Shown here piece after piece: positions 454 through 62,916 of a stretch of DNA of 64,000 bases. Below the pieces are notes generated by a model. That model did not search any database, had not been told where the DNA came from, and saw nothing but the letters and a program-made list of their open reading frames with translations. Each line of letters begins with the position of its first letter. Positions within the stretch are counted from its first letter, which is position 1. The translations under genes and the position numbers were made by a program. Source of the DNA: Porphyromonas pasteri (GTDB lineage Bacteria > Bacteroidota > Bacteroidia > Bacteroidales > Porphyromonadaceae); assembly GCF_014647755.1 (NCBI RefSeq), contig NZ_BMPU01000004.1, forward strand, positions 1-64,000, read 5' to 3'.

Positions 454-583
454 CAAACCAGTAGTCATTTGCGGGTAAAGCAATAGTGGTTTGAATGCAA
501 ACAACTACTTATTCGAGTAGCAAACCAGTAGTGGTTCGCACCCCAAACCAATAGTCGTTTGACCCTAAACAACTATTGGAGTA
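454..583. repeat. palindrome array A1, six 18-bp words
   Basis: Six imperfect palindromic words related to CAAACCAnTAGTnGTTTG start at 454, 476, 498, 521, 544 and 566, a spacing of 22-23 bp. The 4-5 bp spacers are not conserved. The same word family recurs in the array at 11611-11742. No gene is visible between the left edge region and rnhB, and this array is one of three in that gap. Confidence 0.85.
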
Positions 584-720
584 CAGCACACACTCTGTAA
601 GTAGGCGTAAGAGGGCAATAAGGAGGCGGTGCATTTGCTGGGGATGAAAGGCGCGCGGGAAGGGAAAAGCTCCCGCATACTCCCCTACCCCACTCAATAC
701 ATATAGAAGGGGGTGCCATC

Positions 721-822
721 AACCTATATTGGTCAGCGGGCGAACCTATATAGGTCGGCGCTTCGACCAATATAGGTTGCTTTCGTGACCTATATAGCTT
801 CGCCCGCCGACCAATATAGAAT
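721..822. repeat. palindrome array A2, five 14-bp words at exact 22-bp spacing
   Basis: Words of the ACCTATATAGGT / ACCAATATAGGT family start at 721, 743, 765, 787 and 809. Spacing is exactly 22 bp, giving a 102-bp element. The first and fourth 8-bp spacers are reverse complementary at 7 of 8 positions. The third word (765-778) is the exact reverse complement of the first. Confidence 0.92.
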
Positions 823-876
823 CACACCACCCTACTAAAGGTAGCCTTCCCGCTATCCCTCCAAAGAGAAAAAAGC

Positions 877-979
877 AACCAGTACTGGTCACCACTCCAA
901 CCACTACTGGTTACTATCTGTGACCAGTACTACTTCGCAGTGTGACCAGTACTGCTCCGACCGCCGACCAGTACTGGTC
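877..979. repeat. palindrome array A3, ACCAGTACTGGT type
   Basis: Five words of the ACCAGTACTGGT type start at 877, 899, 922, 944 and 966 (steps 22, 23, 22, 22). The first word begins AACC; inner words mostly begin GACC. The same word recurs in the array at 49123-49225. Confidence 0.9.
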
Positions 980-1003
980 GATTTCACTACCTATAAATAG
1001 TAG

Positions 1004-1044
1004 GCGCCCCGCTGCTGGCCAGATAAAGCCAAGCAGCGGGGCGC
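1004..1044 (-). terminator. hairpin terminator downstream of rnhB
   Basis: A perfect 13-bp inverted repeat (1004-1016 and 1032-1044, GCGCCCCGCTGCT on the plus strand) with a 15-base loop lies 25 bp past the rnhB stop. It should end the sufS-rnhB transcript. Confidence 0.75.
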
Positions 1045-1068
1045 TATACATTATATATAAGGAGTGGA

Positions 1069-1683
1069 TCAGACCAAGCGGAAGGTCATTCGGTGGATGG
1101 GCGACGGGCCTAAGTCAGCGATGGCACGGCGGTGCGCTGGCGTCGGGTAGCCCTTGTGCCCTGCGAAGCCATAGCCTGGGTAGCGGGCGTCTTCGGTGAG
1201 CATCAGCTCATCACGGTGCGTCTTCGCGAGGATTGAGGCGGCAGCGATGCTTGCAAACGTGGCATCCCCCTTGACGATACACTCGTGGGGGATGTCGTGG
1301 TAGGGCTTGAAGCGGTTGCCGTCAATAAGGAGTAGCTCGGGACGAAGCGGTAGGTCATCTATTGCACGGTGCATCGCAAGGAAGGAGGCCTGCAGAATGT
1401 TGATCTCATCAATCTCCTCGGGGGAAACAATCCCGACACCCCACGCCAAAGCCGCTTCCTCGATGATCGGGCGGAGCGTGTCGCGCTGATGCTCGGAGAG
1501 CTGCTTGGAGTCGAAGAGTAGTGGATGGTAGAAGGTCGGGGGCAAGATCACAGCCGCAGCGACGACAGGGCCGGCTAAGCACCCACGCCCCGCCTCATCA
1601 CAGCCACACTCCAGACGGCCATCTTCTCCGAAGCTCACGCGCAGGGGTGCGTGTTCCTTCACTGACTTCATAGACCTACTCAT
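1069..1683 (-). CDS. rnhB: ribonuclease HII
   Basis: This 204-residue protein should be RNase HII, the cytoplasmic endonuclease that cuts RNA in RNA-DNA hybrids and starts removal of misincorporated ribonucleotides. The signature GCDEAGRG (residues 27-34) carries the first catalytic Asp and Glu. Later conserved segments, LLIDGNRF and [17 protein letters not shown], fit the family, as does the length. It follows sufS by 13 bp on the same strand, so the two are probably co-transcribed from the promoter near 2945. The start at 1683 gives the longest frame; a second Met four codons in is also possible. The family call is secure. Confidence 0.96.
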
Positions 1684-1696
1684 CGTAAGCGGGGGC

Positions 1697-2917
1697 TTAG
1701 CTCAGCATAGGGACGACGCGGTGCAGGGCGTCGAAGAAGCGGTCCACCTCCTCACGGGTGTTGTACAGCCCGAAGGAAGCGCGTGCCACCGCCTGATGTC
1801 CGTAGGACGCCAAGAGCGGTTCGGCGCAGTGATGCCCCGTGCGGATCGCGATACCCATACGGTCGAGGAGCGTCCCGAGGTCAAAGGGATGGATCTCCCC
1901 GATGCCGAAGGAGAGAATACCATCCTTATTGGGTGCTTCGCCGAGGATGAAGCTATCGGGGAATTCACTCTTGAGGCGAGCCGTAGCATAGTGCAGGAGG
2001 TCTTCCTCATGCGCTGCGATGGCTTCGATGCCCAGCTCCTTCACGAAGTCGAGCGCACGAGCAAAGGCAGTAGAGCCTACGTAGTCGGGCGTACCGGCCT
2101 CGAACTTGAAAGGCAGGCTATTATATGTAGTCTTCTCGAAGGTCACTCGCTCGATCATCTCTCCCCCACCCATGTACGGCGGCATGCGATCCAGCACCTC
2201 GGGGCGGCCATAGAGCGCACCGATACCCGTCGGCCCGTAGATCTTGTGGGCGCTGAAGGCATAGAAGTCCGCCCCGATTGCCTCGACGTCGGCTTGCGTA
2301 TGTGCGATAGCCTGCGCTCCGTCGATGAGGACGAGGGCACCTGCTTCGTGCGCCAAGCGCGTGATTTCAGCTACAGGATTGACCGTACCGAGGACGTTGC
2401 TGACGTGGGCGACGGCGACAAGGCGCGTACGCTCGCTGAGCAGAGAGCGGTAGGCATCCATATCGATCTCACCTGCGGGCGTCAAGGGGATGACACGCAG
2501 ATGCGCCCCGCGACGCTCGCACATCATCTGCCAAGGCACGATATTCGAGTGGTGCTCCATCGTGCTGATAATGACCTCGTCGCCAGCGGAGACGAAGGCT
2601 TCGCCAGCGGAAGATGCGACGAGGTTGATGGCCTCCGTAGTGCCACGGGTGAAGATAAGACCTTCGGCTGAGGGTGCTCCGATGAAGTCAGCGACACGAC
2701 GGCGCGCAGCTTCGTGGTGCTCGGTCGCGATCTGGCTGAGGTAGTGCACGCCACGATGGACGTTGGCATTGGCCGAATAATAGGCCTCCTCGATGGCCTG
2801 AATGACGCAGCGAGGCTTCTGAGTGGTCGCAGCATTGTCGAGGTAAACGAGGGGCTTACCATAGACCTCCGCTGCGAGTATAGGGAATTGGGCTCTTATA
2901 TCTTCTACAGAATACAT
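1697..2917 (-). CDS. sufS: cysteine desulfurase, SufS type
   Basis: This 406-residue PLP enzyme should convert cysteine to alanine and pass persulfide sulfur to Fe-S cluster assembly. Seen directly are the PLP Schiff-base Lys in SAHKIYG (K225), EHHSN near residue 121, and the catalytic Cys in [11 protein letters not shown] (C364). The RxGHHCA context and short active-site loop are typical of group II (SufS) rather than IscS enzymes. No other suf gene lies beside it here; its partner is rnhB, 13 bp downstream. A -7 box at 2945-2952 gives a leader of only about 20 bases. The length is normal for the family. Confidence 0.95.
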
Positions 2918-2944
2918 AATCTGATTCGTTTAAGAATTCACCTG

Positions 2945-2952
2945 CAAAAGTA
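2945..2952 (-). promoter_or_regulatory. -7 box (TACTTTTG) for sufS-rnhB
   Basis: TACTTTTG on the minus strand matches TAnnTTTG and lies 28 bp before the sufS ATG. Confidence 0.5.
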
Positions 2953-2983
2953 CGTAATAATTAGGGCGATGGCATAGAAAAGG

Positions 2984-3022
2984 CCTCGCCCCCACGGCTG
3001 CAAAGAGCACACGGAGGCGAGG
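2984..3022 (-). terminator. hairpin terminator after the DUF4876-like gene
   Basis: CCTCGCCCCC (2984-2993) pairs with GGAGGCGAGG (3013-3022) with one mismatch. It lies about 45 bp past the stop of the last gene of the 3-11 kb surface cluster. Confidence 0.5.
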
Positions 3023-3066
3023 TCGTAGAGAAAGTAGACGAGGAAGCCTATGCTTCGGAGGAGGGA

Positions 3067-4176
3067 TTACTTCTCCGATGTCGTGGGCTTCTTCAAGCCA
3101 AGAGAGGCGGGCTGGACGGTGAAGTCACTGGTCGAATTGTTGTCGTCGACAAACTTCTTCCCGTCCCACTTTCGGATAAGTGCGAGGCCAGAGTACTTCT
3201 GCCAGTCGCTCTTCGGGAGGTTCTTCGCACTGACCTCCGTGACGGCATTGTAGCCCTTATCGAAGGTATTCTTATAGGGATTGATCTTGTAGCGTCGCTT
3301 GGGGCAGACGGTGATGCAGTCCAGCGCCTTGGAGAAGGGAATCTCGATAGCGTAGAAGTCGGCGAAGAGGCTGTTGGTGACATTGATATAGTGACGGTAG
3401 CCGAGGCGCTCCTTGGTATCCTGATAGTTCTCGCGGAAGTCCTCAGGCGTCCAGGGGAGCTGTATGAGGGCGATGCCGTTCTGCCCAGAGATCTGCTTGA
3501 TACCGAAGTCCGAGTACTTCGCACCCTTCTTATCTACGCCCGTGAGGATGGGCACGAGGTCGGGGACATTGGGGTTGTTCATATGCTGGCGGTCGTAGTC
3601 ACTGTGCGTCCACTCCCAGTCGGCTTTCGTCAGGTCGATGAGGGAGTCCACGCCCTTGTAGCGCTTGGGATCTTCGCGCTCTTCGCCATAATCATCGGCC
3701 TGCTTATTGAGACGAACGAAATATTCCTTGGCGTGGTCGATGGCATACTTAGCGATGACGACCGTCTGCCCTGGCTGGATCGGATGCTCCTTCCCACTGC
3801 CAGGGAAGTAAGAGATCGTCTCGACACCGATATACTTACGGCGAAAGTCCTCCTTCCCTGCGAAGGTACGCTCGTCCGAAGGGTCGAGGGCGGTGGTGCA
3901 GAGTGCGAGACCGTCGAGGTACTTGACCTCCGAGGTGGGGTTGAAGATCGTGATGTACTGGTCGTCTTCATACCACGACTTCACGGGAGGATATCCCCAC
4001 TCTTCGGGGAAGCTCTTCGTGATGACGTGCCCGATGTAGAAGACCTCCTTGATGATGAGGTGATCGACGGAGGAGCGGGAGTTCGAGCGACGCTGGGGCG
4101 CTTCGTTGCGAGTACAGGCCATCAGCCCCGAGAGGAACACCAAGGCCAAGGCGAAGCGATATATATAAGTGCGCAT
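3067..4176 (-). CDS. DUF4876-like lipoprotein, paralogue 1
   Basis: A 369-residue predicted lipoprotein with signal segment and lipobox LSGLMAC (Cys21). The body resembles the Bacteroidota DUF4876 family, with segments IKEVFYIGH, YITIFNPTSEVKYLDGLALC and IQPGQTVVIAKYAIDHAK; the DUF assignment is from memory. It should sit on the outer membrane or in the periplasm. It is the last gene of a minus-strand cluster with a TonB receptor and three other lipoproteins, and is strongly similar throughout to the next gene (4314-5417). The role is unknown; context suggests ligand capture for the receptor at 8328-10748. Its C-terminal tail (KKPTTSEK) survives downstream of a stop codon in the paralogue. 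Confidence 0.85.
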   Translation of the reverse strand: MRTYIYRFALALVFLSGLMACTRNEAPQRRSNSRSSVDHLIIKEVFYIGHVITKSFPEEWGYPPVKSWYEDDQYITIFNPTSEVKYLDGLALCTTALDPSDERTFAGKEDFRRKYIGVETISYFPGSGKEHPIQPGQTVVIAKYAIDHAKEYFVRLNKQADDYGEEREDPKRYKGVDSLIDLTKADWEWTHSDYDRQHMNNPNVPDLVPILTGVDKKGAKYSDFGIKQISGQNGIALIQLPWTPEDFRENYQDTKERLGYRHYINVTNSLFADFYAIEIPFSKALDCITVCPKRRYKINPYKNTFDKGYNAVTEVSAKNLPKSDWQKYSGLALIRKWDGKKFVDDNNSTSDFTVQPASLGLKKPTTSEK

Positions 4177-4216
4177 AGCTGGATATAATGCTGTGAGGAG
4201 ATTAGAGGAAGCCCAT

Positions 4217-4242
4217 CCCCATGAACTTCAATAGTCATGGGG
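4217..4242 (-). terminator. small hairpin between the two DUF4876-like genes
   Basis: CCCCATGA and TCATGGGG form a perfect 8-bp stem with a 10-base loop in the 137-bp gap between the paralogues. It may end or attenuate transcription there, which would make paralogue 1 partly independent of its neighbours. Confidence 0.4.
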
Positions 4243-4313
4243 GCAAGGTCGTGAGAGGCTATAGATAAGGCTAATGAAGCCTTAATAGCAACTTACTTCT
4301 CTGAAGGAATCGG

Positions 4314-5417
4314 CTACTTAGATCCGAGCGAAGCAGGCTGTACAGCAAAGTCGCTGGTTGAGTTGTTATCGTCGACTAACTTCTTACCATCCCACTTGCG
4401 AATCAGAGCCATACCGGAGTACTTCTTCCAGTCGCTTGCTGGCGTCCTCTTATATGCCCCATCTGTGACTGCATTATAGCCCTTATCAAAGGTCGCTTTA
4501 GGCTCCTTGCTATAGGGGTTGAACTTGTATTCTTGCTTAGGGCAGATGGTGATGCAGTCTATAGCCTTGTCAAAGGGAATTTCTATGACGTGAATACGAT
4601 TGCGGTGGTGGGTAATACGAGCATTGATCGTATGTCTATAGCCACGGCGTCCCTCGGCATCTGGGTAGTTCTGGCGGAAGTCTTCAGCAGTCCAAGGGAG
4701 CTGAATCAGAGCGATACCACTCGTCTCGGTAACCTCCTTAAATCCGAAATCTACGTCATCATCCTCTTCGGCATCATACCCCGTGAAGATGGGGACGAGG
4801 TCAGGTACATTCGGGTTGTTTTTATGCTCGTCATCGGCTTGGGCATTGGTCCATTCCCAATCCACCTTTGAGAGATTCAAGAACGCTTCGATTCCCTTGT
4901 ACAGGTTGTGGTCAACAGGGGGTTCTCCATTATCGGCGAGCTCCTTATCGAGACGAGTGAAGAAGTCCTTGGCGTGGTCAATCGCATACTTAGCGATAAC
5001 TACCGTTTGCCCGGGCTGGATAGGATGCTCCTTCCCACTGCCAGGGAAGTATGAGATAGTTCCCACTCCGAGGTACTCCCGTCTGAAGTCCTTGTTCCCT
5101 TCGAATTCAAGTAAAGTAGACGGGTCAAGTGCCGTGGAGCAGAGAGCAAGACCATCGAGATACTTGACCTCTGAGGTGGGATTATAAATCGTGATGTACG
5201 CATCATCAGCATACCAATTCTGCGTCGATGGCTGGGGATACTCTTTCGGGAAATCCTGAGTATAGGCATGCCCAATATAGAAGACCTCCTTGATAACCAA
5301 GTGGTCAAGAGTAGAGCGTGAATCGGAGCGACGCTGGGGGGCTTCGTTGCGAGCGCAGGACATCAATACCGAGAGGAACAGCATCGCAAAGGCGAAGCGA
5401 TATATGTGTGTACGCAT
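4314..5417 (-). CDS. DUF4876-like lipoprotein, paralogue 2 (tail cut by a stop)
   Basis: A 367-residue lipoprotein (lipobox LSVLMSC, Cys21) that aligns end to end with the gene at 3067-4176. Both share the N-terminal signal region, the EVFYIGH and NPTSEVKYLDGLALC segments and the C-terminal KKFVDDNNSTSDF-like block. The frame stops at TAG (4316-4314). The next codons in the same frame read PIPSEK and then TAA (4295-4293), matching the PTTSEK end of paralogue 1, so this copy has lost a short tail. The function is unknown. Tandem duplication beside a TonB receptor suggests two variants of one ligand-binding or accessory part. Confidence 0.85.
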   Translation of the reverse strand: MRTHIYRFAFAMLFLSVLMSCARNEAPQRRSDSRSTLDHLVIKEVFYIGHAYTQDFPKEYPQPSTQNWYADDAYITIYNPTSEVKYLDGLALCSTALDPSTLLEFEGNKDFRREYLGVGTISYFPGSGKEHPIQPGQTVVIAKYAIDHAKDFFTRLDKELADNGEPPVDHNLYKGIEAFLNLSKVDWEWTNAQADDEHKNNPNVPDLVPIFTGYDAEEDDDVDFGFKEVTETSGIALIQLPWTAEDFRQNYPDAEGRRGYRHTINARITHHRNRIHVIEIPFDKAIDCITICPKQEYKFNPYSKEPKATFDKGYNAVTDGAYKRTPASDWKKYSGMALIRKWDGKKLVDDNNSTSDFAVQPASLGSK

Positions 5418-5448
5418 AATAGCTGAAGATTATTTAGTGAAGATATGA

Positions 5449-6867: not shown

Positions 6868-6882
6868 AGTGAGGAGTGGGCA

Positions 6883-10857: not shown

Positions 10858-10978
10858 GGTGCGGGCATGTGGCTCGCTCACCTATTGAGATGGTAGTCAG
10901 AGATATGGCTGTGGCTTACAGCTCTTATCAGGAGGTAGAGGTTTGATTCATTCGCTATCGGCTGAGTTAGAGATCGAA

Positions 10979-11032
10979 TGTGTACTATCGGCATTGCAAA
11001 ATTAATGTGTACTATCGGCACTGCAAAATTAG
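10979..11032 (-). promoter_or_regulatory. 27-bp tandem duplication carrying two -7 boxes
   Basis: Units 10979-11005 and 11006-11032 differ at two positions. Each carries TAATTTTG on the minus strand (11004-10997 and 11031-11024), which fits the TAnnTTTG -7 consensus. The receptor operon may thus have two promoters 27 bp apart, with a leader of about 240 bases. Confidence 0.6.
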
Positions 11033-11280: not shown

Positions 11281-11598
11281 TTGCCGCGAGTCCTGTCCTC
11301 TATTTCGAGTGCTAAGGCATCACACGCCCAGCTCCCCGATGTACCTCTCCGAAGTGATACGCAAGCCCTTCGTCTTATCGCAAGTATTCCTCTTATCCTG
11401 CGGAGGGAAAAGCATCGTTCTCGTGAAGAAAAAAGCGCCTTCACGTAGTGGTTTTTCTGCATCTATGTACGTAGTCTTAAAGACCAGGCACGCAAATCCA
11501 AATATCCACGTACGTAGATATTAGAGCCACGTACGTAGTCCAAACTTATCTGCCACTCGTCCACAACTTTTATCCCTACGTGGAGCAACAACCTAATA
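11281..11598 (+). repeat. dispersed repeat, copy 1 (318 bp)
   Basis: This block aligns without gaps to 56340-56657, by eye about 90% identical and also 318 bp. A diverged inverted copy lies near 37560-37760. The last third holds a four-word array of CTACGTACGTAG-type palindromes. A frame running through TPSSPMYLSEV and KKKAPSRSGFS is open in the copies, but there is no conserved start codon, so I treat it as non-coding. An array of a different word (11611-11742) begins 12 bp after it. Confidence 0.85.
11463..11540. repeat. palindrome sub-array, CTACGTACGTAG type
   Basis: Word centres (GTACGT or variants) start at 11467, 11488, 11510 and 11531, steps of 21, 22 and 21. The same steps occur in the other two copies of the dispersed repeat. 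The second word is degenerate. Confidence 0.75.
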
Positions 11599-11610
11599 TG
11601 GTGAGCCTTC

Positions 11611-11742
11611 CAAAGCAATAGTGGTATGAAGTGCAAACGAGTAGTGGATGACACGCCGTACCACTATTCATTCGATGTACAAACGAATAGTAGATTGAGC
11701 ACGGAGCAATAGTCGGACGCGTGCAGAGCAGTAGTTGTTTGA
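11611..11742. repeat. palindrome array A4, six 18-bp words
   Basis: Words of the CAAACnAnTAGTnGTTTG family start at 11611, 11634, 11657, 11680, 11703 and 11725 (steps 23, 23, 23, 23, 22). It matches array A1 at 454-583 in word and unit number. It lies just upstream of mnmA. Confidence 0.82.
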
Positions 11743-11864: not shown

Positions 11865-11868
11865 TAGT

Positions 11869-27496: not shown

Positions 27497-27551
27497 GTTT
27501 GTTCCGCTTAGGGGATAGCTACTATCTTACTTGATGGTTTCTTTTAGAGTA

Positions 27552-27559
27552 CAAATGTA
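27552..27559 (-). promoter_or_regulatory. -7 box (TACATTTG) for pheT
   Basis: TACATTTG on the minus strand fits the -7 consensus and sits 56 bp before the pheT ATG. Confidence 0.5.
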
Positions 27560-27760
27560 CGAAAAGCCCTCTACACACGCGCCTATGCCCATAGCACCAC
27601 GAGGCGTCATATTCTTTTGTAGCGCATTCGTTGACCAACGATCCGCCTATCTCTTTGATGAAGCCAAGATAAAATGATTACTAAATAGGAGCAAGCTCAA
27701 TAGGCCGATTCGCCAAACGACTATCACAGCATACTCGCCCCCCGATAGTCAAGCGGTATG

Positions 27761-27862
27761 AACCTATATAGGTCGTTGGGCTGACCTATATTGATCCGCA
27801 GTGCGACCTATATAGATCACGAAGCGAACCTATATTGGTCGACTCACTGACCAATATAGGTT
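27761..27862. repeat. palindrome array A5, five words at exact 22-bp spacing
   Basis: ACCTATATAGGT-family words start at 27761, 27783, 27805, 27827 and 27849. The first begins AACC and the last ends GGTT; inner words begin or end GACC/GGTC or GATC. The array lies between the pheT promoter and the stop of the M16 peptidase gene. The rest of the 400-bp gap (27560-27760) shows nothing else. Confidence 0.92.
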
Positions 27863-31780: not shown

Positions 31781-31883
31781 GCCGTATATGCGCCGATAAA
31801 CTTGCGTATATACGGCGATTTATTTTCGTATATGCGGAAATATTTTTTCGCATATACAGAAATATATTTGTGCATATACGGAA
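31781..31883. repeat. palindrome array A6, CGTATATACG type
   Basis: Cores CGTATATGCG, CGTATATACG, CGTATATGCG, CGCATATACA and TGCATATACG start at 31783, 31805, 31827, 31849 and 31871, exactly 22 bp apart. It lies between two converging genes, after the kbl terminator and before the terminator of the C69 peptidase. Confidence 0.9.
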
Positions 31884-37560: not shown

Positions 37561-37760
37561 CCTACGGTGGATTCATTCAGTCTACGTACGTAGATCTAAG
37601 GACTACGTGCGTGGACATTTAGATTTAGGTACCTGGCCGATAAGACTACGTACGTGGATAGAGAAATACCACTACGGGAAGCTGCATACTTCCTCGCGGG
37701 ACTGCCACTTTTTCCGCTACTGAATAAGAAAAACCGCTGTGATGGATGAAGGCCTTGCCC
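37560..37760 (-). repeat. dispersed repeat, diverged copy 3 (inverted)
   Basis: Read on the minus strand, this aligns with the second half of the 318-bp repeats at 11281-11598 and 56340-56657. The shared core includes CGTAGTGG(T/A)(T/A)TTTCT, a GACCAGG/GGCCAGG block, and ACGTACGTAG words at the same spacing. Identity is clearly lower than between copies 1 and 2, and the limits are approximate. The frame containing SRSG(F/I)S is open here too. Confidence 0.65.
37580..37659. repeat. palindrome sub-array in repeat copy 3
   Basis: CTACGTACGTAG-type words start at 37582, 37603, 37625 and 37646 (steps 21, 22, 21), the same steps as in the other copies. The third word has changed to TTAGGTACCTGG yet kept a palindromic core (AGGTACCT). 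Confidence 0.75.
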
Positions 37761-43304: not shown

Positions 43305-43592
43305 TTAGGCCTCCTTGTGCTTCTCGAGCTTACGCTTCAGGACGTCGATACAGAGATCGACAGATTCCTCGAAGCTGTTGCCTGTCTTGTCGACAAAGAA
43401 GTCTGCACCATTGACCTTGAGCTTGATGGAGGCTTCCTTGTTATTGGATACTTCGGGCTTGACAACCTTTAGGACGACTTCGGCGGCCTGTATATCGTCG
43501 GCGAAGCGGGTCAGCTTCTCGAGTTTCTTCTGGATAAAGGCCTTGAGCTGCTCTGTGGCATCGAAGTGGATGGCTTGAATTCGGATGTCCAT
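43305..43592 (-). CDS. hpf: ribosome hibernation-promoting factor, short form
   Basis: 95 residues from the ATG at 43592 (beginning MDIRIQAIHFDATEQL); the longer frame has no support. It is a HPF/RaiA (YfiA) fold protein that binds the 30S subunit and parks ribosomes in stationary phase. IQKKLEKLTRFADDI and the basic C-terminal helix VLKRKLEKHKEA fit the short family; the C-terminal dimerisation domain of long HPF is absent. A -7 box at 43679-43686 leaves a leader of about 80 bases. Confidence 0.9.
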   Translation of the reverse strand: MDIRIQAIHFDATEQLKAFIQKKLEKLTRFADDIQAAEVVLKVVKPEVSNNKEASIKLKVNGADFFVDKTGNSFEESVDLCIDVLKRKLEKHKEA

Positions 43593-43865: not shown

Positions 43866-43967
43866 AACCTATATTGGTCGGCGGGCTGACCTATATATCT
43901 TCGCACTCCGACCTATATTGGTCGCATCGGTGACCTATATAGGTCAGCCCGTCGACCAATATAGGTT
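43866..43967. repeat. palindrome array A7, five words at exact 22-bp spacing
   Basis: ACCTATATAGGT-family words start at 43866, 43888, 43910, 43932 and 43954. The first (AACCTATATTGGTC) and last (GACCAATATAGGTT) are exact reverse complements. Spacers 1 and 4 are reverse complementary at 7 of 8 positions. It lies between hpf and the susD terminator. Confidence 0.93.
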
Positions 43968-49122: not shown

Positions 49123-49225
49123 AACCAGTACTGGTCGACGAAGTGACCAGTACTGGTCACGACGCGAAGTAGTACTGGTCAATAATAGCCACCAGTACTG
49201 GTCACTTCGTCGACCAGTACTGGTT
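49123..49225. repeat. palindrome array A8 with perfect 22-bp terminal inverted repeats
   Basis: ACCAGTACTGGT-type cores start at 49124, 49146, 49168, 49191 and 49213 (steps 22, 22, 23, 22). The first word plus its spacer (49123-49144) is the exact reverse complement of the last spacer plus word (49204-49225). The array lies between the susC promoter region and the terminator of the recF operon. Confidence 0.93.
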
Positions 49226-54189: not shown

Positions 54190-54225
54190 AGTGGGATAAG
54201 GGAAGCTCACTTCCCCTATCCCACT
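54190..54225 (-). terminator. terminator after the psd-pssA-DUF4834 operon
   Basis: AGTGGGATA (54190-54198) pairs with TATCCCACT (54217-54225); an inner AGGGAAG/TTCCCCT pairing extends the stem. Confidence 0.75.
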
Positions 54226-54277
54226 GCTTCGGATAGCGTATGTAAATACGGTGTATGGAGTACGCGCAGAGCGCTAC

Positions 54278-54580
54278 TTAGTCCCGTGGAAGCTCCTCGA
54301 AGTCAACGTACTCGTCACTTGAGGGGCGGGTGAACTTGCGAGCCTCGATATCATCGAGCTCCTGCTTCTGGCGGCTGTCCGAGCTCTCTGCCGTGCCTTC
54401 ACGGCGCTCGGAGGATGCCCCTGGGGCACCGTAGCCACGATTGCGGTAAGCCTCACCACCGGCCGCCTCGGTCATACGACGCTGCAGGCGCTGGAGGAGC
54501 TTCACGGCCAGCCAAGCTTGGATCGTAGGCCAGTAGAGGTAGAGGAGGACACCGATGAGGATTATTATCAGGAGGCTCAT
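54278..54580 (-). CDS. DUF4834-like small membrane protein
   Basis: A 100-residue protein with one N-terminal transmembrane helix (LLIIILIGVLLYLYWPTI) and a polar tail ending YVDFEELPRD, matching the DUF4834 family of Bacteroidota (from memory). It lies 74 bp after pssA. Its steady place behind phospholipid genes hints at an inner-membrane role. The function is unknown. Confidence 0.85.
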   Translation of the reverse strand: MSLLIIILIGVLLYLYWPTIQAWLAVKLLQRLQRRMTEAAGGEAYRNRGYGAPGASSERREGTAESSDSRQKQELDDIEARKFTRPSSDEYVDFEELPRD

Positions 54581-54654
54581 ATCGAATTCTGATTTATCTA
54601 ATACATACTATGTGACAAAGCTCCTCAGTCAAAGAGCGTGCCAAAGCACTCCGC

Positions 54655-55353: not shown

Positions 55354-55395
55354 TCCTACTATTATATATATGTATAAGGAGGGGTGCTGTACTGC

Positions 55396-56052: not shown

Positions 56053-56098
56053 AGGGGTCTATTGAGTGGACACTTTATGACATGGGTAATATATCGTG

Positions 56099-56106
56099 CA
56101 AATATA
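56099..56106 (-). promoter_or_regulatory. -7 box (TATATTTG) for psd-pssA
   Basis: TATATTTG on the minus strand, 47 bp upstream of the psd ATG. Confidence 0.5.
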
Positions 56107-56277
56107 CTTAAAAAAGCCTATACCTCAGACAAAAGAGAGACAGCTCCGCGGCAAGCACCTGACATTATGCCATACCGACACGGCCTTATCCTCCCCTTCT
56201 TTCCCCCACTTTTCAGCCCTCGTATATAGCTCCTTCCCCGCGGATATCGGAAGTCCATCTCCGAGAGGGATTAAGTG

Positions 56278-56313
56278 GCCTCATATAGGTTGCCTCAGCG
56301 ACCAATATAGGAT
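56278..56313. repeat. remnant palindrome array, two words
   Basis: A degenerate word ending ATATAGGTT (56278-56291) and GACCAATATAGGAT (56300-56313) are 22 bp apart. They look like the left-over end of an ACCTATATAGGT-type array. The 318-bp dispersed repeat starts 26 bp later. Confidence 0.6.
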
Positions 56314-56339
56314 CATACCTCATACTACTATTGAGACTG

Positions 56340-56657
56340 TTGCCGCGAGTCCTACCCTCTATTTAGAGTGCTAAGGTATCGCACGCCCAGCTCCCCGATA
56401 TACCTCTCCGAAGTGACCAGCAAGCCCTTCATCCCTTCGCGAGCATTCCTCTTATTCAGCGGAGGGAAAATTATCCTTCTCGTGAAGAAAAAAGCGCCTT
56501 CACGTAGTGGGTTTTCTCTATCTATGCACGTAGATTTAAAGACCAGGTACGTCAATCCAAATATCCACGTACGTAGATATTAGAGCCACGTACGTAGACC
56601 AAACTTATCTGCCACTCGTCCGCAACTTTAATCCCTACGCGGAGCAACAACCTAATA
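56340..56657 (+). repeat. dispersed repeat, copy 2 (318 bp)
   Basis: It aligns without gaps to 11281-11598. Both copies sit upstream of a plus-strand gene and are followed within 12-14 bp by a palindrome array of another word. A four-word CTACGTACGTAG sub-array lies at 56522-56599. The long open frame shared with copy 1 lacks a common start and is judged non-coding. Confidence 0.85.
56522..56599. repeat. palindrome sub-array in repeat copy 2
   Basis: Word centres start at 56526, 56547, 56569 and 56590 (steps 21, 22, 21). Words 3 and 4 are CCACGTACGTAG; words 1 and 2 are degenerate. Confidence 0.75.
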
Positions 56658-56671
56658 GAGATCACTTCACA

Positions 56672-56773
56672 AAGCTATATAGCTTCGCACCGAATGCTAT
56701 ATAGGAATCCAAGCAAAGCTATATAGGAATCAGTCCAAAGCTATATAGCTTTCTTCACCATCCTATATAGCTC
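56672..56773. repeat. palindrome array A9, AAGCTATATAGCTT type
   Basis: Five words start at 56672, 56694, 56716, 56738 and 56760, exactly 22 bp apart. The first and fourth are the perfect palindrome AAGCTATATAGCTT. It lies 84 bp upstream of the -7 box of the large M16 peptidase. Confidence 0.93.
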
Positions 56774-56856
56774 TACTCACGCACCCATATACCTATATAT
56801 AGATACCTGCGCGCGTGAGGTATCTCATATAGTAGATACACACCAAAGAATTATCG

Positions 56857-56864
56857 TACATTTG
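56857..56864 (+). promoter_or_regulatory. -7 box (TACATTTG) for the large M16 peptidase
   Basis: TACATTTG, 52 bp before the ATG at 56916. Confidence 0.5.
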
Positions 56865-56915
56865 CGGTATAGTGAACTATAAATATCTTTTCACCTCTTA
56901 AACCACAAACAAGCG

Positions 56916-59768
56916 ATGAGGCTCAAGAAAATCATCTTATCCCTCCTCTCGGCGCTCTTCGTAGGCACCACACTGGGTCTGCCTTCGGCTGCTCAAGCCC
57001 AAGCCCCCAGCGAAATGCCACCACTCCCCATAGACACCGCCGTCCGTATCGGAAAGCTCCCCAATGGTCTGACCTACTTCATTCGTCACAATGAAGAGCC
57101 CAAGGGTAGAGCAGAATTCTATATCGCCCAGAAGGTAGGCTCGATGCAGGAAGAAGACTCGCAGCAGGGTCTGGCTCACTTCCTCGAGCATATCGCCTTC
57201 AACGGCACAAAGAACTTCCCAGGCAAGGGAATCATCAACTTCCTCGAGAGCATCGGTGCCAGCTTTGGTGGCAACATCAATGCTTACACGAGCTTTGACA
57301 AGACGGTCTACACGCTGATGAAGATCCCCGTCCCACGCAAGAGCATCATCGATAGCTGTATCCTCGTACTCCACGACTGGAGTAGCTTCATCAGCCTCGA
57401 GGATAAGGAGATCGATGCTGAGCGTGGTGTCATCGAAGAAGAATGGCGCCGCAGCAATAGCGGGGATATGCGCAATATGGAGAAGCTCCTCGACTTTGCC
57501 TTCCCTGGCAACAAGTACGGTAAGCGCCTCCCCATCGGTAAGATGGAGATCGTACGCAGCTTCCCCTATCAGGTCCTGCGCGACTACTACAAGAAGTGGT
57601 ACCGCCCCGACCTGCAGGCAGTCATCATCGTCGGTGACGTCGACGTCAACTACACGGAGGCTCAGATCAAGAAGATCTTCGCCGACATCCCCGCTCCAGT
57701 GAATGCAGCTGAGCGTGTCTACATCCCTGTCGAAGACAACGACAAGCCCATCGTAGGTATCGCTGCTGACAAGGAAGCTACGCAGAACTCGATCAACATC
57801 TCTTACAAGGCCGACGTCACGCCTCCAAATATCCGCGCTACCCTAATGGGCCCCCTCGAAGACTACATCAAAAGTGTCGTCACTTCGATGATCGCCCAGC
57901 GCTTCAGCGACATCGTCAAGAAGCCTAACGCTCCCTTCGTCAACGCCTCCGTGGACTTCGGCAACTACGTCGTCGCTAAGACCAAGGATGCTGCCAACTT
58001 CGACGCTACCTTCAAGGAAGGTCAGTGGGAGCCTGCTCTCAAGGCTCTCGTAGCTGAGATCGTACGTCTCAAGAAGTACGGCTTCACTCCTGGTGAATAC
58101 AGCCGCGCCAAGAAGGACTACCTCGTCAGCATGAAGAACTTCTACAACGAGCGTGACAAGCGTACCAGCGACGCTTGGGCGAACGTCTATGTAGACTACT
58201 TCGAAGACGGTGGTTACCTCCTCGATATCCCCACGCACTACCAGCTCATCCAGGGCATCGCAGAGCAGTTCCCCCTCGAGCAGATCAATGCTATGGTCCA
58301 GCAGCTTGACCTCGATAAGAATGTACTCGTCGCTCTGACCAGCGTAGAGAAGCCCAGCGTCAAGCTCCCCAGCATCGACGAGCTCACGAAGAAGTACCTC
58401 GACTATACCAAGCAGCAGGTCGAAGCTCCTAAGGACGAGGTCAGCAACGAGAAGCTCATCGACAAGCTCCCCATGAAGGGTAAGATCGTCAAGACCGAGA
58501 AGAACGGTCAGTACGGCTCTACCATCTGGACGCTCTCCAACGGTACGAAGGTCTACATCAAGAAGACCGACTACAAGGAAGATGAGATTCTCTTCAAGGG
58601 TCGCCGTGATGGTGGGTACTACAACTTCACCAAGCCCAGCGCTACGGAGCTGAAGGTCCTCAACAGCCTCCCCACCATCGGTGGTCTCGGCAAGTTCGAT
58701 GAGTCAGCTCTCGAAAAGGCCCTCAGCGGTCGCATCGCTTCTGTCTCTGCGACGGTCTCCAACATCAGCGATGATGTAGCAGGTAGCACGACGAAGGAAG
58801 ACCTCGAGACGATGCTCCAGCTCCTCTATCTCAACTTCACTGCTGTACGCGCTGACAAGGACGCCTTCCAGGCATGGCAGGAGCGTACCATCAGCCAGAT
58901 CGAGGCAAGCAAGGCTAACCCTCTCTCCTTCCTCGGCGACTCCGTCACGCGCTACATCTTCCCCAACAACCCTGAACGCTACCCACTCAGCGTCGAAGAA
59001 GTCAAGAGCGTGAACTACGATCGTGTGCTCCAGCTCTTCCGTAGCCGCTTCGCTAACGCTCGTGGCTTCGAATTCTACTTCGTAGGTAATGTCGACGAAG
59101 CAGCCCTCCGCCCTCTCGTAGAGCAGTACATCGCTTCACTCCCCGCGCAGAAGGTCTACACCGACAAGGCTCACACGAACCGCGTCCCCGTAGAGCGCCT
59201 CGGCACGAACAAGAAGGAGTACAGCGCTCCTATGGAGACGCCCATGGGTATCGTCATCGACGGCCTCTCCGCACCTACGACCTACAGCCAGCAGGAAGGT
59301 CTGACGAGCGCTGTGCTTGAGTCTATCCTCGACCAGCTCTACACGAAGACGATCCGCGAAGATGCAGGCGGTGCCTACAGCGTCGGTGTCCTCGCTGACG
59401 TATCACGCTTCCCCAGCCCACGCACGAACGTCACCGTCCAGTTCCAGACCGACCCCGCTAAGGCCGTAGCTATGAACGAGCTCGTCTTCAAGGGTCTCGA
59501 AGGCATCGTCAAGAACGGCCCCTCTGCTGAGTACTTCGACAAGGCTGTCAAGAACCTCAAGAAGGCTCACGGCGAAAGCCTCCGCAAGAACAGCTACTGG
59601 CTCGGCCAGCTCGCTCGCTTCTACGGTCAGGGCTTCGACTTCGTGACGAACTACGACAAGCTCCTCGACGCTGTCACGCCTCAGTCTGTACAGGCTCTCG
59701 CTAAGAAGCTCTACGAGTCTAAGGACCGTACGGAGATCCTCTTCCGCTCTACGGAAGCTAAGAAGTAA
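56916..59768 (+). CDS. large exported M16 zinc peptidase (pitrilysin-like)
   Basis: A 950-residue two-lobe M16 peptidase. A signal peptide (IILSLLSALFVGTTLGLPSA) precedes the catalytic lobe, where the inverted zinc motif HFLEH is in GLAHFLEHIAFNGT (about residues 88-101) and the third ligand in the EIDAERGVIEEEWRR region. The second lobe carries the R..Y-like RIREDAGGAYSVGV segment that helps substrate binding. It probably degrades peptides in the periplasm. Codon use is strongly biased to C-ending codons, like kbl and thioredoxin, suggesting high expression. It is transcribed alone with a clear terminator. Confidence 0.93.
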   Translation: MRLKKIILSLLSALFVGTTLGLPSAAQAQAPSEMPPLPIDTAVRIGKLPNGLTYFIRHNEEPKGRAEFYIAQKVGSMQEEDSQQGLAHFLEHIAFNGTKNFPGKGIINFLESIGASFGGNINAYTSFDKTVYTLMKIPVPRKSIIDSCILVLHDWSSFISLEDKEIDAERGVIEEEWRRSNSGDMRNMEKLLDFAFPGNKYGKRLPIGKMEIVRSFPYQVLRDYYKKWYRPDLQAVIIVGDVDVNYTEAQIKKIFADIPAPVNAAERVYIPVEDNDKPIVGIAADKEATQNSINISYKADVTPPNIRATLMGPLEDYIKSVVTSMIAQRFSDIVKKPNAPFVNASVDFGNYVVAKTKDAANFDATFKEGQWEPALKALVAEIVRLKKYGFTPGEYSRAKKDYLVSMKNFYNERDKRTSDAWANVYVDYFEDGGYLLDIPTHYQLIQGIAEQFPLEQINAMVQQLDLDKNVLVALTSVEKPSVKLPSIDELTKKYLDYTKQQVEAPKDEVSNEKLIDKLPMKGKIVKTEKNGQYGSTIWTLSNGTKVYIKKTDYKEDEILFKGRRDGGYYNFTKPSATELKVLNSLPTIGGLGKFDESALEKALSGRIASVSATVSNISDDVAGSTTKEDLETMLQLLYLNFTAVRADKDAFQAWQERTISQIEASKANPLSFLGDSVTRYIFPNNPERYPLSVEEVKSVNYDRVLQLFRSRFANARGFEFYFVGNVDEAALRPLVEQYIASLPAQKVYTDKAHTNRVPVERLGTNKKEYSAPMETPMGIVIDGLSAPTTYSQQEGLTSAVLESILDQLYTKTIREDAGGAYSVGVLADVSRFPSPRTNVTVQFQTDPAKAVAMNELVFKGLEGIVKNGPSAEYFDKAVKNLKKAHGESLRKNSYWLGQLARFYGQGFDFVTNYDKLLDAVTPQSVQALAKKLYESKDRTEILFRSTEAKK

Positions 59769-59799
59769 GCGCTTCACAGCCCTCCCCCACTTCATATAG

Positions 59800-59838
59800 C
59801 AAGCCGGGCACCCTCCCCATCTGAGGATGCCCGGCTTG
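59800..59838 (+). terminator. terminator after the large M16 peptidase
   Basis: CAAGCCGGGCA (59800-59810) pairs perfectly with TGCCCGGCTTG (59828-59838). Confidence 0.8.
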
Positions 59839-59921
59839 TCGCTTAATGAACAATTCGCCCCATCTCACGCTTATCATACCAACGAGCAGTATTCTATCAC
59901 CTCGTAGCAACTAACTGAATA

Positions 59922-60446
59922 ATGAAGAAAGTCATCCTCAGCCTCGCCCTCATCTCCGCAGGTCTCTTCTCGAGCTATGCCTGCACGGCCAAGGCTTCGA
60001 GCAACGCTGCTTCTGCCTCCACCGAGACGACTGCAGCTGCCCCCAGCGAAGAAGCTGCTGCCGACGATAAGGCCGCAGAAGGCGCTATCAAGCACATCGA
60101 CGCAGCCTACCTGCGCAAGTACATCTGGGACTACAAGGAAGAGCCCTCGAAGTTCGTCTTCAAGGGCAGCCGTCCCGCTATCCTCGACTTCTACGCCGAC
60201 TGGTGCGGTCCCTGCCGTAAGCTCAGCCCCAAGCTCGAAGCTATCGCTAAGAAGTATGCGGGTAAGATCGACGTCTACAAGATCGATGTCGACAAGGAAG
60301 CTGATCTGGCCAATATCTTCGGTGTGAAGAGCATCCCTATGTGCCTCTTCATCCCTATGCAGGGTACGCCCATCCAGACAGTAGGCGATCTCACTCCCGA
60401 TCAGATCGAGGAGACCATCAAGCAGATCTACTCCGACGCTAAGTAA
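59922..60446 (+). CDS. exported thioredoxin-like protein
   Basis: A 174-residue protein with an N-terminal signal segment that ends near SSYAC, then an Ala/Ser/Glu-rich linker (about residues 25-55), then a thioredoxin domain with active site WCGPC in DFYADWCGPCRKL and the cis-Pro in GVKSIPMCLF. It should act as a periplasmic or membrane-linked thiol oxidoreductase. A lipobox is only weakly matched. Whether it reduces or oxidises partners cannot be told from sequence. It converges with serS; a perfect 25-bp terminator lies between. Confidence 0.92.
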   Translation: MKKVILSLALISAGLFSSYACTAKASSNAASASTETTAAAPSEEAAADDKAAEGAIKHIDAAYLRKYIWDYKEEPSKFVFKGSRPAILDFYADWCGPCRKLSPKLEAIAKKYAGKIDVYKIDVDKEADLANIFGVKSIPMCLFIPMQGTPIQTVGDLTPDQIEETIKQIYSDAK

Positions 60447-60466
60447 GCCCAGCGAGTCATTCGCAT

Positions 60467-60528
60467 CTACAATAAAAGCTCATCCCCACACCGCCTGATG
60501 GCAGTGTGGGGATGAGCTTTTATTGTAG
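60467..60528. terminator. bidirectional terminator, perfect 25-bp stem
   Basis: Arms 60467-60491 and 60504-60528 are perfectly complementary around a 12-base loop, with AATAAAA / TTTTATT at the outer ends. It serves both the thioredoxin gene and the converging serS. Confidence 0.9.
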
Positions 60529-60548
60529 CGTCCGAGTGAGGAAGTCGC

Positions 60549-61835
60549 TTACTTCTTCGTAGGACGGGGGATGAAGTCAAAGCCCGTGTAAGGACGAAGA
60601 GCCTCGGGGATGCGGATACCTTCAGGCGTCTGGTTGTTCTCCAGCAGCGCTGCGACGATACGGGGCAGAGCCAGTGCACTACCATTGAGCGTGTGCACGA
60701 GCTGGACACCCTGCTCAGCGTCACGATAGCGGCAGCGCAGGCGGTTGGCCTGATAGCTCTCGAAGTTGGACACAGAGCTGACCTCAAGCCAACGCTTCTG
60801 TGCAGCAGAGAAGACCTCGAAGTCATAGGTCAGTGCGCTGGTGAAGCTCATATCGCCACCGCTCAGACGCAGGATGCGCCAGGGCAGCTCAAGCTTCGTG
60901 ACGAGCGTCTCTACGTAGGCGACCATCTCATCGAGGCGCTGATAGCTGCGCTCGGGCTTGTCAATGCAGACGATCTCGACCTTGTCGAACTGGTGGAGGC
61001 GGTTCAGACCACGCACATCCTTACCATACGACCCAGCTTCGCGGCGGAAGCAGGCGGAGTAAGCTGTGTTGCGCACGGGCAGGTCCTTCTCCTCGAGGAT
61101 GACGTCACGATAGATATTCGTCACAGGCACCTCAGCCGTAGGGATGAGATAGAGGTTGTCCACCGTAGCGTGGTACATCTGCCCTTCCTTGTCGGGGAGC
61201 TGACCCGTGCCGTAGCCAGAGTCTTCGTTGACGACGTAGGGAGGCTGTACCTCGAGGTAACCAGCTTCACGAGCATTGTCGAGGAAGAAGTTGATGAGCG
61301 CGCGCTGCAGGCGAGCTCCATAACCCTTATAGACGGGGAAGCCAGCACCCGAGATCTTCACACCCAGCTCGAAGTCAATGAGGTCATAGTCCTTCGCCAG
61401 CTCCCAGTGGGGCTCGGCGGTAGCATCGAGTGCGGGCATCTCGCCACCAGTCTTGACGCAGACGTTGTCCTCAGCCGTAGCGCCTTCGGGCACGATGTCA
61501 GCGGGGAGGTTAGGTACAGAGAGCAGGATCTCACGGATCTTAGCTTCGGCCTCGGCCTTCTTCTCCTCAAGGCTCTTGCTTGCCTCCTTGAGCAGTGCCA
61601 CCTGAGAGCGGATGCTCTCAGCCTGCTCCTTGGCGCCCTGCTTCATCAGATCACCGATCTCCTTAGCGAGGGCCTTCTGACGAGAGAGGCTGGCATCGAG
61701 CTCCTGCTGAGAGCGACGGCGGATCTCATCGAAGTTCAGGACTTCGGTGATCGCTTCGCGTGCCTCGAATTGCTTCTTGCGGAGGCGCTCAATGACCGCC
61801 TCGGTATTCTCCTTGATTTGCTTGAGTGTAAGCAT
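60549..61835 (-). CDS. serS: serine-tRNA ligase
   Basis: A 428-residue class II synthetase. The N-terminal coiled coil that grips tRNA-Ser spans about residues 30-105 (SRQKALAKEIGDLMKQGA). The catalytic motifs are TAEVPVTNIYRD, motif 2 in FRREAGSYGKDVRGLNRLHQF, and motif 3 with LNGSALALPRIVAALLE. It is the third gene after rplU and rpmA on the same strand (gap 101 bp), a common Bacteroidota order. Confidence 0.97.
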   Translation of the reverse strand: MLTLKQIKENTEAVIERLRKKQFEAREAITEVLNFDEIRRRSQQELDASLSRQKALAKEIGDLMKQGAKEQAESIRSQVALLKEASKSLEEKKAEAEAKIREILLSVPNLPADIVPEGATAEDNVCVKTGGEMPALDATAEPHWELAKDYDLIDFELGVKISGAGFPVYKGYGARLQRALINFFLDNAREAGYLEVQPPYVVNEDSGYGTGQLPDKEGQMYHATVDNLYLIPTAEVPVTNIYRDVILEEKDLPVRNTAYSACFRREAGSYGKDVRGLNRLHQFDKVEIVCIDKPERSYQRLDEMVAYVETLVTKLELPWRILRLSGGDMSFTSALTYDFEVFSAAQKRWLEVSSVSNFESYQANRLRCRYRDAEQGVQLVHTLNGSALALPRIVAALLENNQTPEGIRIPEALRPYTGFDFIPRPTKK

Positions 61836-61936
61836 AATATCTCGTGTGGGGTATAATGAGAGGAGGTCGCTCCCTCCGGGCTGTGTAGACCCTTCTGGAG
61901 CAACCTCCGGTTGACTTGTCTGACGTGTGCTCCGTC

Positions 61937-62194
61937 TTAGGCCTCAGCCGAGATGGAGACGTACGAGCGGTCGTTCTTCTTGCGAGTGAAGACCACCTTA
62001 CCGTCGATCAGTGCATAGAGCGTGTGGTCCTTACCGATACCTACGCCTGCACCTGGGTGATGCTGCGTGCCACGCTGGCGGACGATGATGTTACCAGCCT
62101 TAGCGTGCTGACCACCGAAGAGCTTTACTCCGAGTCGCTTACTTTCTGATTCGCGTCCGTTCTTGGAGCTACCTACACCTTTTTTATGTGCCAT
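61937..62194 (-). CDS. rpmA: 50S ribosomal protein L27
   Basis: An 85-residue ribosomal protein. It begins [16 protein letters not shown], so there is no cleavable N-terminal extension of the Firmicutes type. [15 protein letters not shown] and the GKVVFTRKK tail are diagnostic. It reaches the peptidyl-transferase centre of the ribosome. It lies 36 bp after rplU in one operon. Confidence 0.98.
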
Positions 62195-62230
62195 TGTCTT
62201 ATGTCTAAACTAATGCGGTGATACAATTAC

Positions 62231-62548
62231 TTACGCTACGATTTCCTTGACGAGGACTTCGCTGAACTGCTGGCGGTGGCCATTGAGCTTGCGATAGCCC
62301 TTACGGCGCTTCTTGTGGAAGACGAGTACCTTGTCGCCCTTTACAAGAGGCGTGATGATTTCGCACACGACCTTAGCACCAGCCACTACAGGCGTACCTA
62401 CAGTGACAGCACCATCCTTGTCTACGAGGAGGACCTTGTCGAATTCTACTACTGCGCCACTCTCTGCACCCTTGACGTGGTGAATGAAGAGGCGACGGCC
62501 CTGTTCTACATTGAACTGCTGGCCCTGAATGTCTACGATGACGTACAT
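62231..62548 (-). CDS. rplU: 50S ribosomal protein L21
   Basis: A 105-residue ribosomal protein. It begins [18 protein letters not shown] and contains the basic C-terminal [16 protein letters not shown], both typical. It heads the rplU-rpmA-serS operon. A structured leader (62577-62629) and a -7 box (62646-62653) lie upstream, so feedback control at the leader is possible. Confidence 0.98.
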
Positions 62549-62576
62549 TATCGTTGATAACTAAAAAGTTAGCCCC

Positions 62577-62629
62577 GTAGGGTGCCACCCGCTCCACGAC
62601 GGAGGGATAGACTTCTTCTCCTACCCTAC
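62577..62629 (-). promoter_or_regulatory. folded leader of rplU
   Basis: GTAGGGT (62577-62583) pairs with ACCCTAC (62623-62629) and encloses an inner hairpin CTCC-ACGAC-GGAG (62592-62604). The layout resembles ribosomal-protein leaders that bind their own product, but no known leader class is recognised. Confidence 0.4.
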
Positions 62630-62645
62630 ATAGGAAATTCGGTCA

Positions 62646-62653
62646 CAAAGATA
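62646..62653 (-). promoter_or_regulatory. -7 box (TATCTTTG) for rplU-rpmA
   Basis: TATCTTTG on the minus strand, about 98 bp before the rplU ATG. Confidence 0.55.
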
Positions 62654-62814
62654 CAAAAATATCTGATAAAACACCTTGCACACCCTTGACTTTCACCGAA
62701 GAAACATCCTCAGTCCGAGCTCTTCCCCTACCCCACGCAAGGCAACATCTCCCTCCACCAAAGAAGCCCCCACTACAGCCTGCCGCACCACGGAGTCCCA
62801 CAGTAAGGGCTATG

Positions 62815-62916
62815 AACCTATATTGGTCACTGCTCCGACCTATATTGGTCAGCGCACGAACCTATATTGGTCGTCACGCCGACCTATATAGATCCACCCG
62901 ACGACCAATATAGGTT
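62815..62916. repeat. palindrome array A10, five words at exact 22-bp spacing
   Basis: ACCTATATAGGT-family words start at 62815, 62837, 62859, 62881 and 62903. The first (AACCTATATTGGTC) and last (GACCAATATAGGTT) are exact reverse complements, as in A7. It lies between the divergent rplU promoter and the nuclease-like gene. The remaining gap (62917-63103) shows nothing else. Confidence 0.93.

What the first reader, a model, noticed from the sequence alone, without database searches (positions are those of the whole stretch)
454..62916. Family of intergenic arrays of short palindromes set at 22 bp, one word per array
Seen directly: at least thirteen arrays plus one remnant lie in gaps between genes and none in a gene. 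Most are 102-103 bp: five 14-bp palindromic words with unique 8-bp spacers. Word starts are exactly 22 bp apart in A2, A5, A6, A7, A9 and A10; A3 and A8 have one 23-bp step, A1 and A4 steps of 22-23, and the three sub-arrays steps of 21, 22, 21. Each array repeats its own word, and six word families are used. Words sit on one face of the helix (two turns apart), which points to cooperative binding of a dimeric protein, or of a family whose members read different words. Iteron-like, nucleoid-anchor and regulator-array roles all fit. Direct repeats near 22 bp have, as far as I recall, been noted in Porphyromonas gingivalis; whether these are the same is unchecked.
Basis: partly seen in the sequence, partly recalled or inferred. 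Interest (0 to 1): 0.9.

Follow-up and report, generated by a model that had tools for sequence, protein, structure and literature searches.

The report
Species-specific palindrome arrays upstream of promoters
Porphyromonas bacteria carry many short DNA arrays upstream of their promoters, built mostly from four or five copies of one palindromic word at a fixed spacing, and each of four species examined uses its own word, which suggests an unknown DNA-binding protein whose target changes from species to species.

Summary
The arrays are real. An unbiased scan finds 57 in 464 kb of this genome (about 270 if uniform), none in a gene of 80 aa or more and none in a shuffle. The commonest class, 5 x RACC(W/A)NT half-site palindromes at 22 bp, occurs only in arrays (91 of 91 words) and sits mostly 90-300 bp upstream of promoter-like TAnnTTTG motifs. 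The phenomenon extends across Porphyromonas, and the words are species-exclusive. Strict two-word patterns give 377 matches in P. catoniae and 74 in G016, none elsewhere in the genus; 217 here against 0-4 elsewhere. Oral taxon 278 has 263 copies of its own word; three other genomes have none. The invariant is an 8-bp gap: 14-bp words step by 22, 15-bp words by 23. Orthologous genes such as pheT carry arrays upstream with different words in four species, although the neighbouring gene differs. Departures from symmetry show no strand bias (G.T 30: A.C 29), so selection acts on double-stranded DNA, not RNA hairpins. Best reading: cooperative binding platforms for dimeric protein(s) at promoter boundaries, with a species-specific dialect. 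REP/RAYT, CRISPR and RNA-terminator readings fail tests. P. gingivalis BrickBuilt is a partial relative.

The parts
455..584 (.). degenerate array of about six AAACCANTANTGGTTT words, steps 22-23
721..822 (.). five-word TATA-type array (AACCTATATTGGTC ...), steps 22
877..979 (.). five-word AGTACT-type array, spacers 8,9,8,8
11436..11600 (+). copy of a dispersed repeat (32 listed copies in this genome, nearly all 92-96% identical) carrying TCTACGTACGTAGA words at 43 and 21 bp (words 11462-11539)
11612..11742 (.). degenerate array of about six AAACNANTANTNGTTT words next to the dispersed repeat
   Evidence: read directly
27761..27862 (.). five-word TATA-type array between pheT (start 27496, minus) and its upstream neighbour; orthologous pheT genes in three other species have arrays with other words
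27550..27570 (-). pheT promoter-like motif TACATTTG, 63 bp upstream of the start codon, between array and gene
31781..31882 (.). five-word CGTATATACG array in a convergent intergenic region
37582..37681 (-). degraded (80% identical) copy of the dispersed repeat: the 'remnant'
43866..43967 (.). five-word TATA-type array upstream of the hibernation-promoting-factor gene (43305-43592, minus); the oral taxon 278 orthologue also has an array with its own word
49123..49225 (.). five-word AGTACT-type array; outer spacers are exact reverse complements (gacgaagt / acttcgtc)
56495..56657 (+). second copy of the dispersed repeat (92% identical), words 56521-56598
56672..56773 (.). five-word AGCTATATAGCT array at the right end of the dispersed repeat
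62815..62916 (.). five-word TATA-type array in the divergent region upstream of rplU (L21, 62231-62548, minus)

Best explanation
Each array is a row of operator-like sites on double-stranded DNA. A dimeric protein binds each palindromic word through two 6-bp half-sites, and neighbouring dimers touch across the constant 8-bp gap, so that a set of four or five dimers forms one cooperative complex. The complexes stand upstream of promoters, between one transcription unit and the next. Their most likely job is to mark and insulate the upstream boundary of the promoter, as a roadblock to read-through or a supercoil barrier, or to act on the promoter from a distance. The protein differs in specificity between species, and the word in the arrays of a genome has followed it. 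Shown here: architecture, exclusivity of words, intergenic and promoter-upstream placement, strand symmetry, sharing of arrays by orthologous genes. Inferred: that a protein reads them, cooperativity, boundary function. Not found: the protein.
For: Words occur almost only as arrays: 91/91 here and 42/42 in P. catoniae have a neighbour at 20-25 bp, and 0 of 252 in four species lie in genes. Counts are nearly fixed: five in this species (18 of 26) and P. catoniae (11 of 12), four in G016 (25 of 28). The gap is 8 bp whether the word is 14 bp (step 22) or 15 bp (step 23). Departures from symmetry fall on fixed half-site positions and are strand-neutral: G.T 30 vs A.C 29 here, 20 vs 18 in P. catoniae. 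TAnnTTTG lies between array and start codon in 31 of 38 genes, inside an array in none, beyond it within 150 bp in 2. RACC arrays are tandem or divergent, never convergent. Word exclusivity. Orthologues share arrays more than expected (15 pairs; Fisher p 0.006 to 1e-6 by intergenic cut-off, pairs not independent), while the upstream neighbour is never the orthologue (0 of 12), so arrays go with the downstream promoter. Downstream genes identified include pheT, rplU, HPF, tkt, a methylmalonyl-CoA mutase gene and feoB: no obvious regulon.
Against: No reader protein was found. The conserved TetR has an identical recognition helix in all four species, and the HTH_3 hits compared gave no candidate (ParB; others without counterparts). 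Array-promoter distance varies widely (about 55 to 700 bp). Outer spacers and outer flanks have consensus and some spacers recur, which binding of the words alone does not explain. It is not obvious how hundreds of sites change word together.
Confidence: 0.5

Rival explanations
1. The arrays are non-autonomous mobile or recombining repeats (MITE- or BIME-like) that spread into intergenic regions. Their regular structure is the binding site of a transposase or recombinase, and they drive gene-order change.
For: A dispersed repeat of about 340 bp with 32 listed copies (nearly all 92-96% identical) in this genome carries ACGTACGT words and ends in a variable AGCTATATAG array. P. gingivalis BrickBuilt, published as a MITE (PMC4596501), contains the palindrome TCTCATATGAGA at 23 bp. 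Outer flanks are symmetric and outer spacers inverted copies in some arrays. Gene order is broken at every array tested (0 of 41 syntenic, against 8 of 41 for array-less gaps of 300 bp or more).
Against: Main-class arrays have diverged spacers but intact words, near-fixed word number, and arrays at orthologous promoters with different words; moving copies should share spacers. RAYT transposases are absent from this genome, HOT278 and P. catoniae. Breaks at long array-less gaps (500 bp or more) are nearly as common (26 of 27).
Confidence: 0.27
2. The arrays are transcribed and act as RNA hairpins, terminators or processing signals.
For: Words are palindromes; several arrays lie 30-110 bp beyond a stop codon; in HOT278 some end words are followed by T-runs.
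Against: No strand bias of G.T over A.C; systematic T.T, A.A, C.C and G.G departures that RNA cannot pair; frequent in divergent regions, where no 3' end exists; no Rfam match at the arrays.
Confidence: 0.05
3. The arrays are a species watermark read by DNA uptake, segregation or nucleoid machinery rather than a promoter element, comparable to DUS dialects in Neisseriaceae.
For: Species-exclusive words at many dispersed sites; no functional theme among neighbouring genes.
Against: Strict multi-word architecture, total absence from coding sequence, and tie to promoters are not needed for a watermark.
Confidence: 0.13

Closest known systems
BrickBuilt MITE/minisatellite of Porphyromonas gingivalis (PMC4596501)
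   Same: same genus, intergenic, repeat period 23 bp; its repeat holds a 12-bp palindrome TCTCATATGAGA (seen here, not named as such in the paper)
   Different: spacer conserved ('lacking spacer regions' in the paper), 1-22.8 repeats, leader and tail with transposon-like ends, 19 copies; consensus absent from this genome
REP/BIME elements with RAYT transposases (PMC2817692)
   Same: extragenic palindromes, >100 copies, species-specific, sometimes regularly spaced
   Different: RAYT domain absent from three of the four array-rich genomes; fixed gap and count; promoter-upstream placement; no strand bias
Cooperative operator rows such as MetJ met boxes or the phage 434/lambda operators (own knowledge)
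   Same: short palindromic sites in a row read by cooperating dimers; 434 operators are also 14 bp
   Different: very many arrays per genome, and species-exclusive words
DNA uptake sequence dialects of Neisseriaceae (PMC3630211, abstract only)
   Same: a species-level dialect of a short word at very many sites
   Different: these are strict tandem arrays confined to intergenic regions

Membership tests
REP/BIME with RAYT | a RAYT (Y1 tyrosine transposase) in the genome | tested here: not met
   PF01797: none in G000, G012, G002; one in G016
REP/BIME with RAYT | extragenic, palindromic, abundant, species-specific | tested here: met
BrickBuilt MITE | 23-nt repeat AGAYCATARTATCCTCTCRTRTG | tested here: not met
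   0 in window and genome at up to 3 mismatches; found in G006 and G008 only
BrickBuilt MITE | palindromic word repeated at 22-23 bp in intergenic DNA | tested here: met
   TCTCATATGAGA at 23 bp in G006; the window's arrays share this architecture
BrickBuilt MITE | leader/tail with terminal inverted repeats | tested here: inconclusive
   main arrays have only weak symmetric outer flanks; the dispersed repeat has a leader but its ends were not defined
CRISPR | repeats of roughly 21-50 bp with spacers of similar length (own knowledge) | tested here: not met
   14-bp words with 8-bp gaps
CRISPR | adjacent cas genes | not tested
   not searched
RNA hairpin/terminator array | strand-specific G.U-compatible pairing | tested here: not met
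   G.T 30 vs A.C 29; 20 vs 18
Cooperative operator array | bound by a sequence-specific dimeric protein | not testable with these tools
   needs pull-down or footprinting; the conserved TetR is an unlikely reader given its identical recognition helix
Cooperative operator array | sites at constant spacing next to promoters | tested here: met
   8-bp gap in four species; TAnnTTTG between array and gene in 31/38

The most novel reading that the evidence does not exclude
A genus-wide promoter-boundary system in which one rapidly evolving DNA-binding protein (or paralogue set) and well over a hundred cooperative arrays per genome change their recognition word together between species, so that every species has a private dialect at orthologous promoters.
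Probability: 0.4. Interest if true: 0.92.

Novelty: new variant of a known kind. Interest (0 to 1): 0.8.

Why it matters
Binding sites of global regulators are usually conserved between related species because many sites must change together. Here each of four species has its own exclusive word in a very large number of arrays, with arrays at orthologous promoters. That makes the co-evolution of a reader and its sites directly testable in a cultured genus that includes P. gingivalis, and it suggests an unrecognised layer of promoter or chromosome organisation in Porphyromonas.

Tried and rejected
Rfam: only a tRNA in the window. RNA-hairpin reading: rejected by strand symmetry. REP/RAYT: RAYT absent. 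BrickBuilt as the same element: its repeat is absent here. TetR and HTH_3 proteins as reader: the one TetR shared by all four species has an identical recognition helix; the HTH_3 hits compared were ParB or had no matching counterpart (one search failed on orientation and was repeated). Search for orthologues with one hypervariable window among sampled genes: no DNA-binding candidate. Whole array as one long hairpin: the inner spacers are not complementary. The 77-bp inverted repeat of the P. gingivalis capsule locus: oligonucleotides in PMC3969353 show no 22-bp array. Literature searches for 22-bp or palindromic arrays in the genus found only BrickBuilt.

Full report
WHAT WAS CHECKED. The window is contig C4:1-64000 of a 2.17-Mb Porphyromonas genome, 99.8% complete. 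Its nearest named relatives by pheT are Porphyromonas sp. oral taxon 278 (84%) and P. catoniae (74%). It finds none in 20 shuffles of the window. In 464 kb of the genome, including the window, it finds 57 arrays against 0 in a shuffle, and none overlaps a predicted gene of 80 aa or more.

ANATOMY. The commonest class in this genome has half-sites RACCTAT, RACCAAT, RACCAGT or RACCACT, joined head to head. TATA-type arrays are mostly five words with gaps 8,8,8,8. AGTACT-type arrays are five words with gaps 8,9,8,8 or 8,8,9,8, the 9-bp gap being AT-rich. Outer words prefer AACC on the outside. The outer gaps have a consensus of their own, and in 4 of 25 arrays gap 1 is the exact reverse complement of gap 4 (7 of 8 bases in 2 more); gaps 2 and 3 never are. 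Symmetric flank consensus continues about 20 bp beyond both ends. At least seven other word types occur, e.g. CGTATATACG, GTGCGCAC, AGCTATATAGCT and TTATACGTATAA. CGTATATACG arrays lie mainly in convergent regions (3 of 4), RACC arrays in none of 25.

RELATIVES. The same architecture recurs with other words. P. catoniae: five 15-bp words GASTTA-NNN-TAASTC at 23 bp. Oral taxon 278: GACCTAC-N-GTAGGTC at 23 bp. G016: four GAGGGATATCCCTC words at 22 bp, often with GACGTC centres inside. The gap is 8 bp in all, so the step follows the word length. Strict two-word patterns are exclusive or nearly so among 26 genomes: 217 in this genome and 0-4 in the others, those few being visibly different sequences, 377 only in P. 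catoniae, 74 only in G016. The oral taxon 278 word counts 263 in that genome and 0 in three others searched. P. gingivalis (G006: its length of 2,354,886 bp matches what I recall for ATCC 33277, and it carries BrickBuilt) has 19 arrays in 420 kb, none in a shuffle. Five of them are BrickBuilt; the others use ATTTATATATAAAT, AAACTATATAGTTT, AACTACTAGTGGTT, GACYCCTNAGGGGTC and further words. Weaker hits occur in several other congeners. In 1.39 Mb of other Bacteroidota only 6 irregular chains appear against 2 in a shuffle.

PLACE. For 38 genes with a five-word array upstream (this species and P. catoniae), the Bacteroidetes promoter motif TAnnTTTG lies between array and start codon in 31, inside an array in none, and upstream of it within 150 bp in 2. 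Downstream genes that were identified include pheT, rplU, a hibernation-promoting factor, transketolase, a methylmalonyl-CoA mutase gene and feoB. Near-exact words (252 in four species) include none in genes, and all 91 here and 42 in P. catoniae have a neighbour at 20-25 bp. In oral taxon 278 and G016 a minority (15 of 84 and 8 of 35) had no such neighbour at the thresholds used, some beside N-gaps.

CONSERVATION. Among orthologous genes in the sampled regions, arrays are shared in 15 species pairs (17 and 13 one-sided). Fisher p ranges from 1e-6 (all orthologues) to 0.006 (long intergenic regions only). The pairs are not independent, since pheT supplies six of the fifteen. The upstream neighbour is never the orthologue in the 12 pairs where it is known. 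This means the array goes with the downstream promoter. It also means arrays stand at gene-order breaks: 0 of 41 syntenic against 8 of 41 for array-less gaps of 300 bp or more. Long array-less gaps are nearly all broken too, so causation is open.

DNA OR RNA. Oriented by the flanking tandem genes, asymmetric pairs in the words are G.T 30 and A.C 29 here, 20 and 18 in P. catoniae. T.T/A.A and C.C/G.G departures fall at fixed positions in balanced numbers. Selection therefore acts on the double helix through a degenerate half-site, which is what a dimeric protein would read.

RELATED REPEAT. A repeat of about 340 bp, with 32 listed copies in this genome (nearly all 92-96% identical) and none in 25 congeners, carries TCTACGTACGTAGA words. 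Most copies end in an AGCTATATAG array of variable length; some carry RACC words there instead. BrickBuilt (PMC4596501) is similar in kind: its 23-nt unit contains the perfect palindrome TCTCATATGAGA. Some array classes are thus spread as repeats, while the main class keeps only its words and gaps.

VERDICT. A cooperative protein-bound boundary element with a species-specific word is the best reading (0.5). A mobile or recombining repeat family is the main rival (0.27). The reader protein was not found: the one TetR shared by all four species has the same recognition helix in each. The label 'new variant of a known kind' is a cautious choice, because extragenic palindromic repeat families that differ between species are known (REP/RAYT, PMC2817692), although that family's transposase is missing here.

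Noticed in passing
window 11436-11600, 56495-56657, 37582-37681: Dispersed repeat of about 340 bp, 32 listed copies in this genome (nearly all 92-96% identical) and none in 25 congeners; left ends truncated variably, right end an AGCTATATAG or RACC array.
   Followed up: partly
window 49123-49225, 43866-43967, 721-822 and own loci L135:10138, L137:4941, L139:18292: Outer spacers of these arrays are reverse complements (8 of 8 or 7 of 8), giving inverted repeats of about 36 bp at the two ends; inner spacers are not.
   Followed up: partly
G006 (P. gingivalis), e.g. C1:218449-218739: The published BrickBuilt 23-nt repeat contains an unremarked perfect palindrome TCTCATATGAGA, repeated at 23 bp.
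   Followed up: partly
orthologous genes in G000, G012, G016, G002: Gene order is broken at every array-bearing promoter compared between species.
   Followed up: partly
L007:4208-4330 and L003:1499-1578: 3'-side arrays in P. catoniae (convergent genes) and G013 with ACCCTATATTGGGT words and GC-NNNN-GC spacers, where adjacent words can form long hairpins; a different class from the promoter-side arrays.
   Followed up: no
L049:5855-5938: Array-like chain of four GTACAATATATGTAC words (steps 22, 25, 22) in an uncultured Bacteroidetes MAG; the most convincing chain seen outside Porphyromonas.
   Followed up: no
window 10977-11030: Two tandem 27-bp repeats AATGTGTACTATCGGCAYTGCAAAATT upstream of a TonB-dependent receptor gene.
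   Followed up: no
G012 arrays (e.g. C36:299076-299159): Oral taxon 278 arrays often carry one A-tract spacer (TCGAAAAAA) and A/T runs at both outer edges; some of the assembly's N-gaps fall inside arrays.
   Followed up: no
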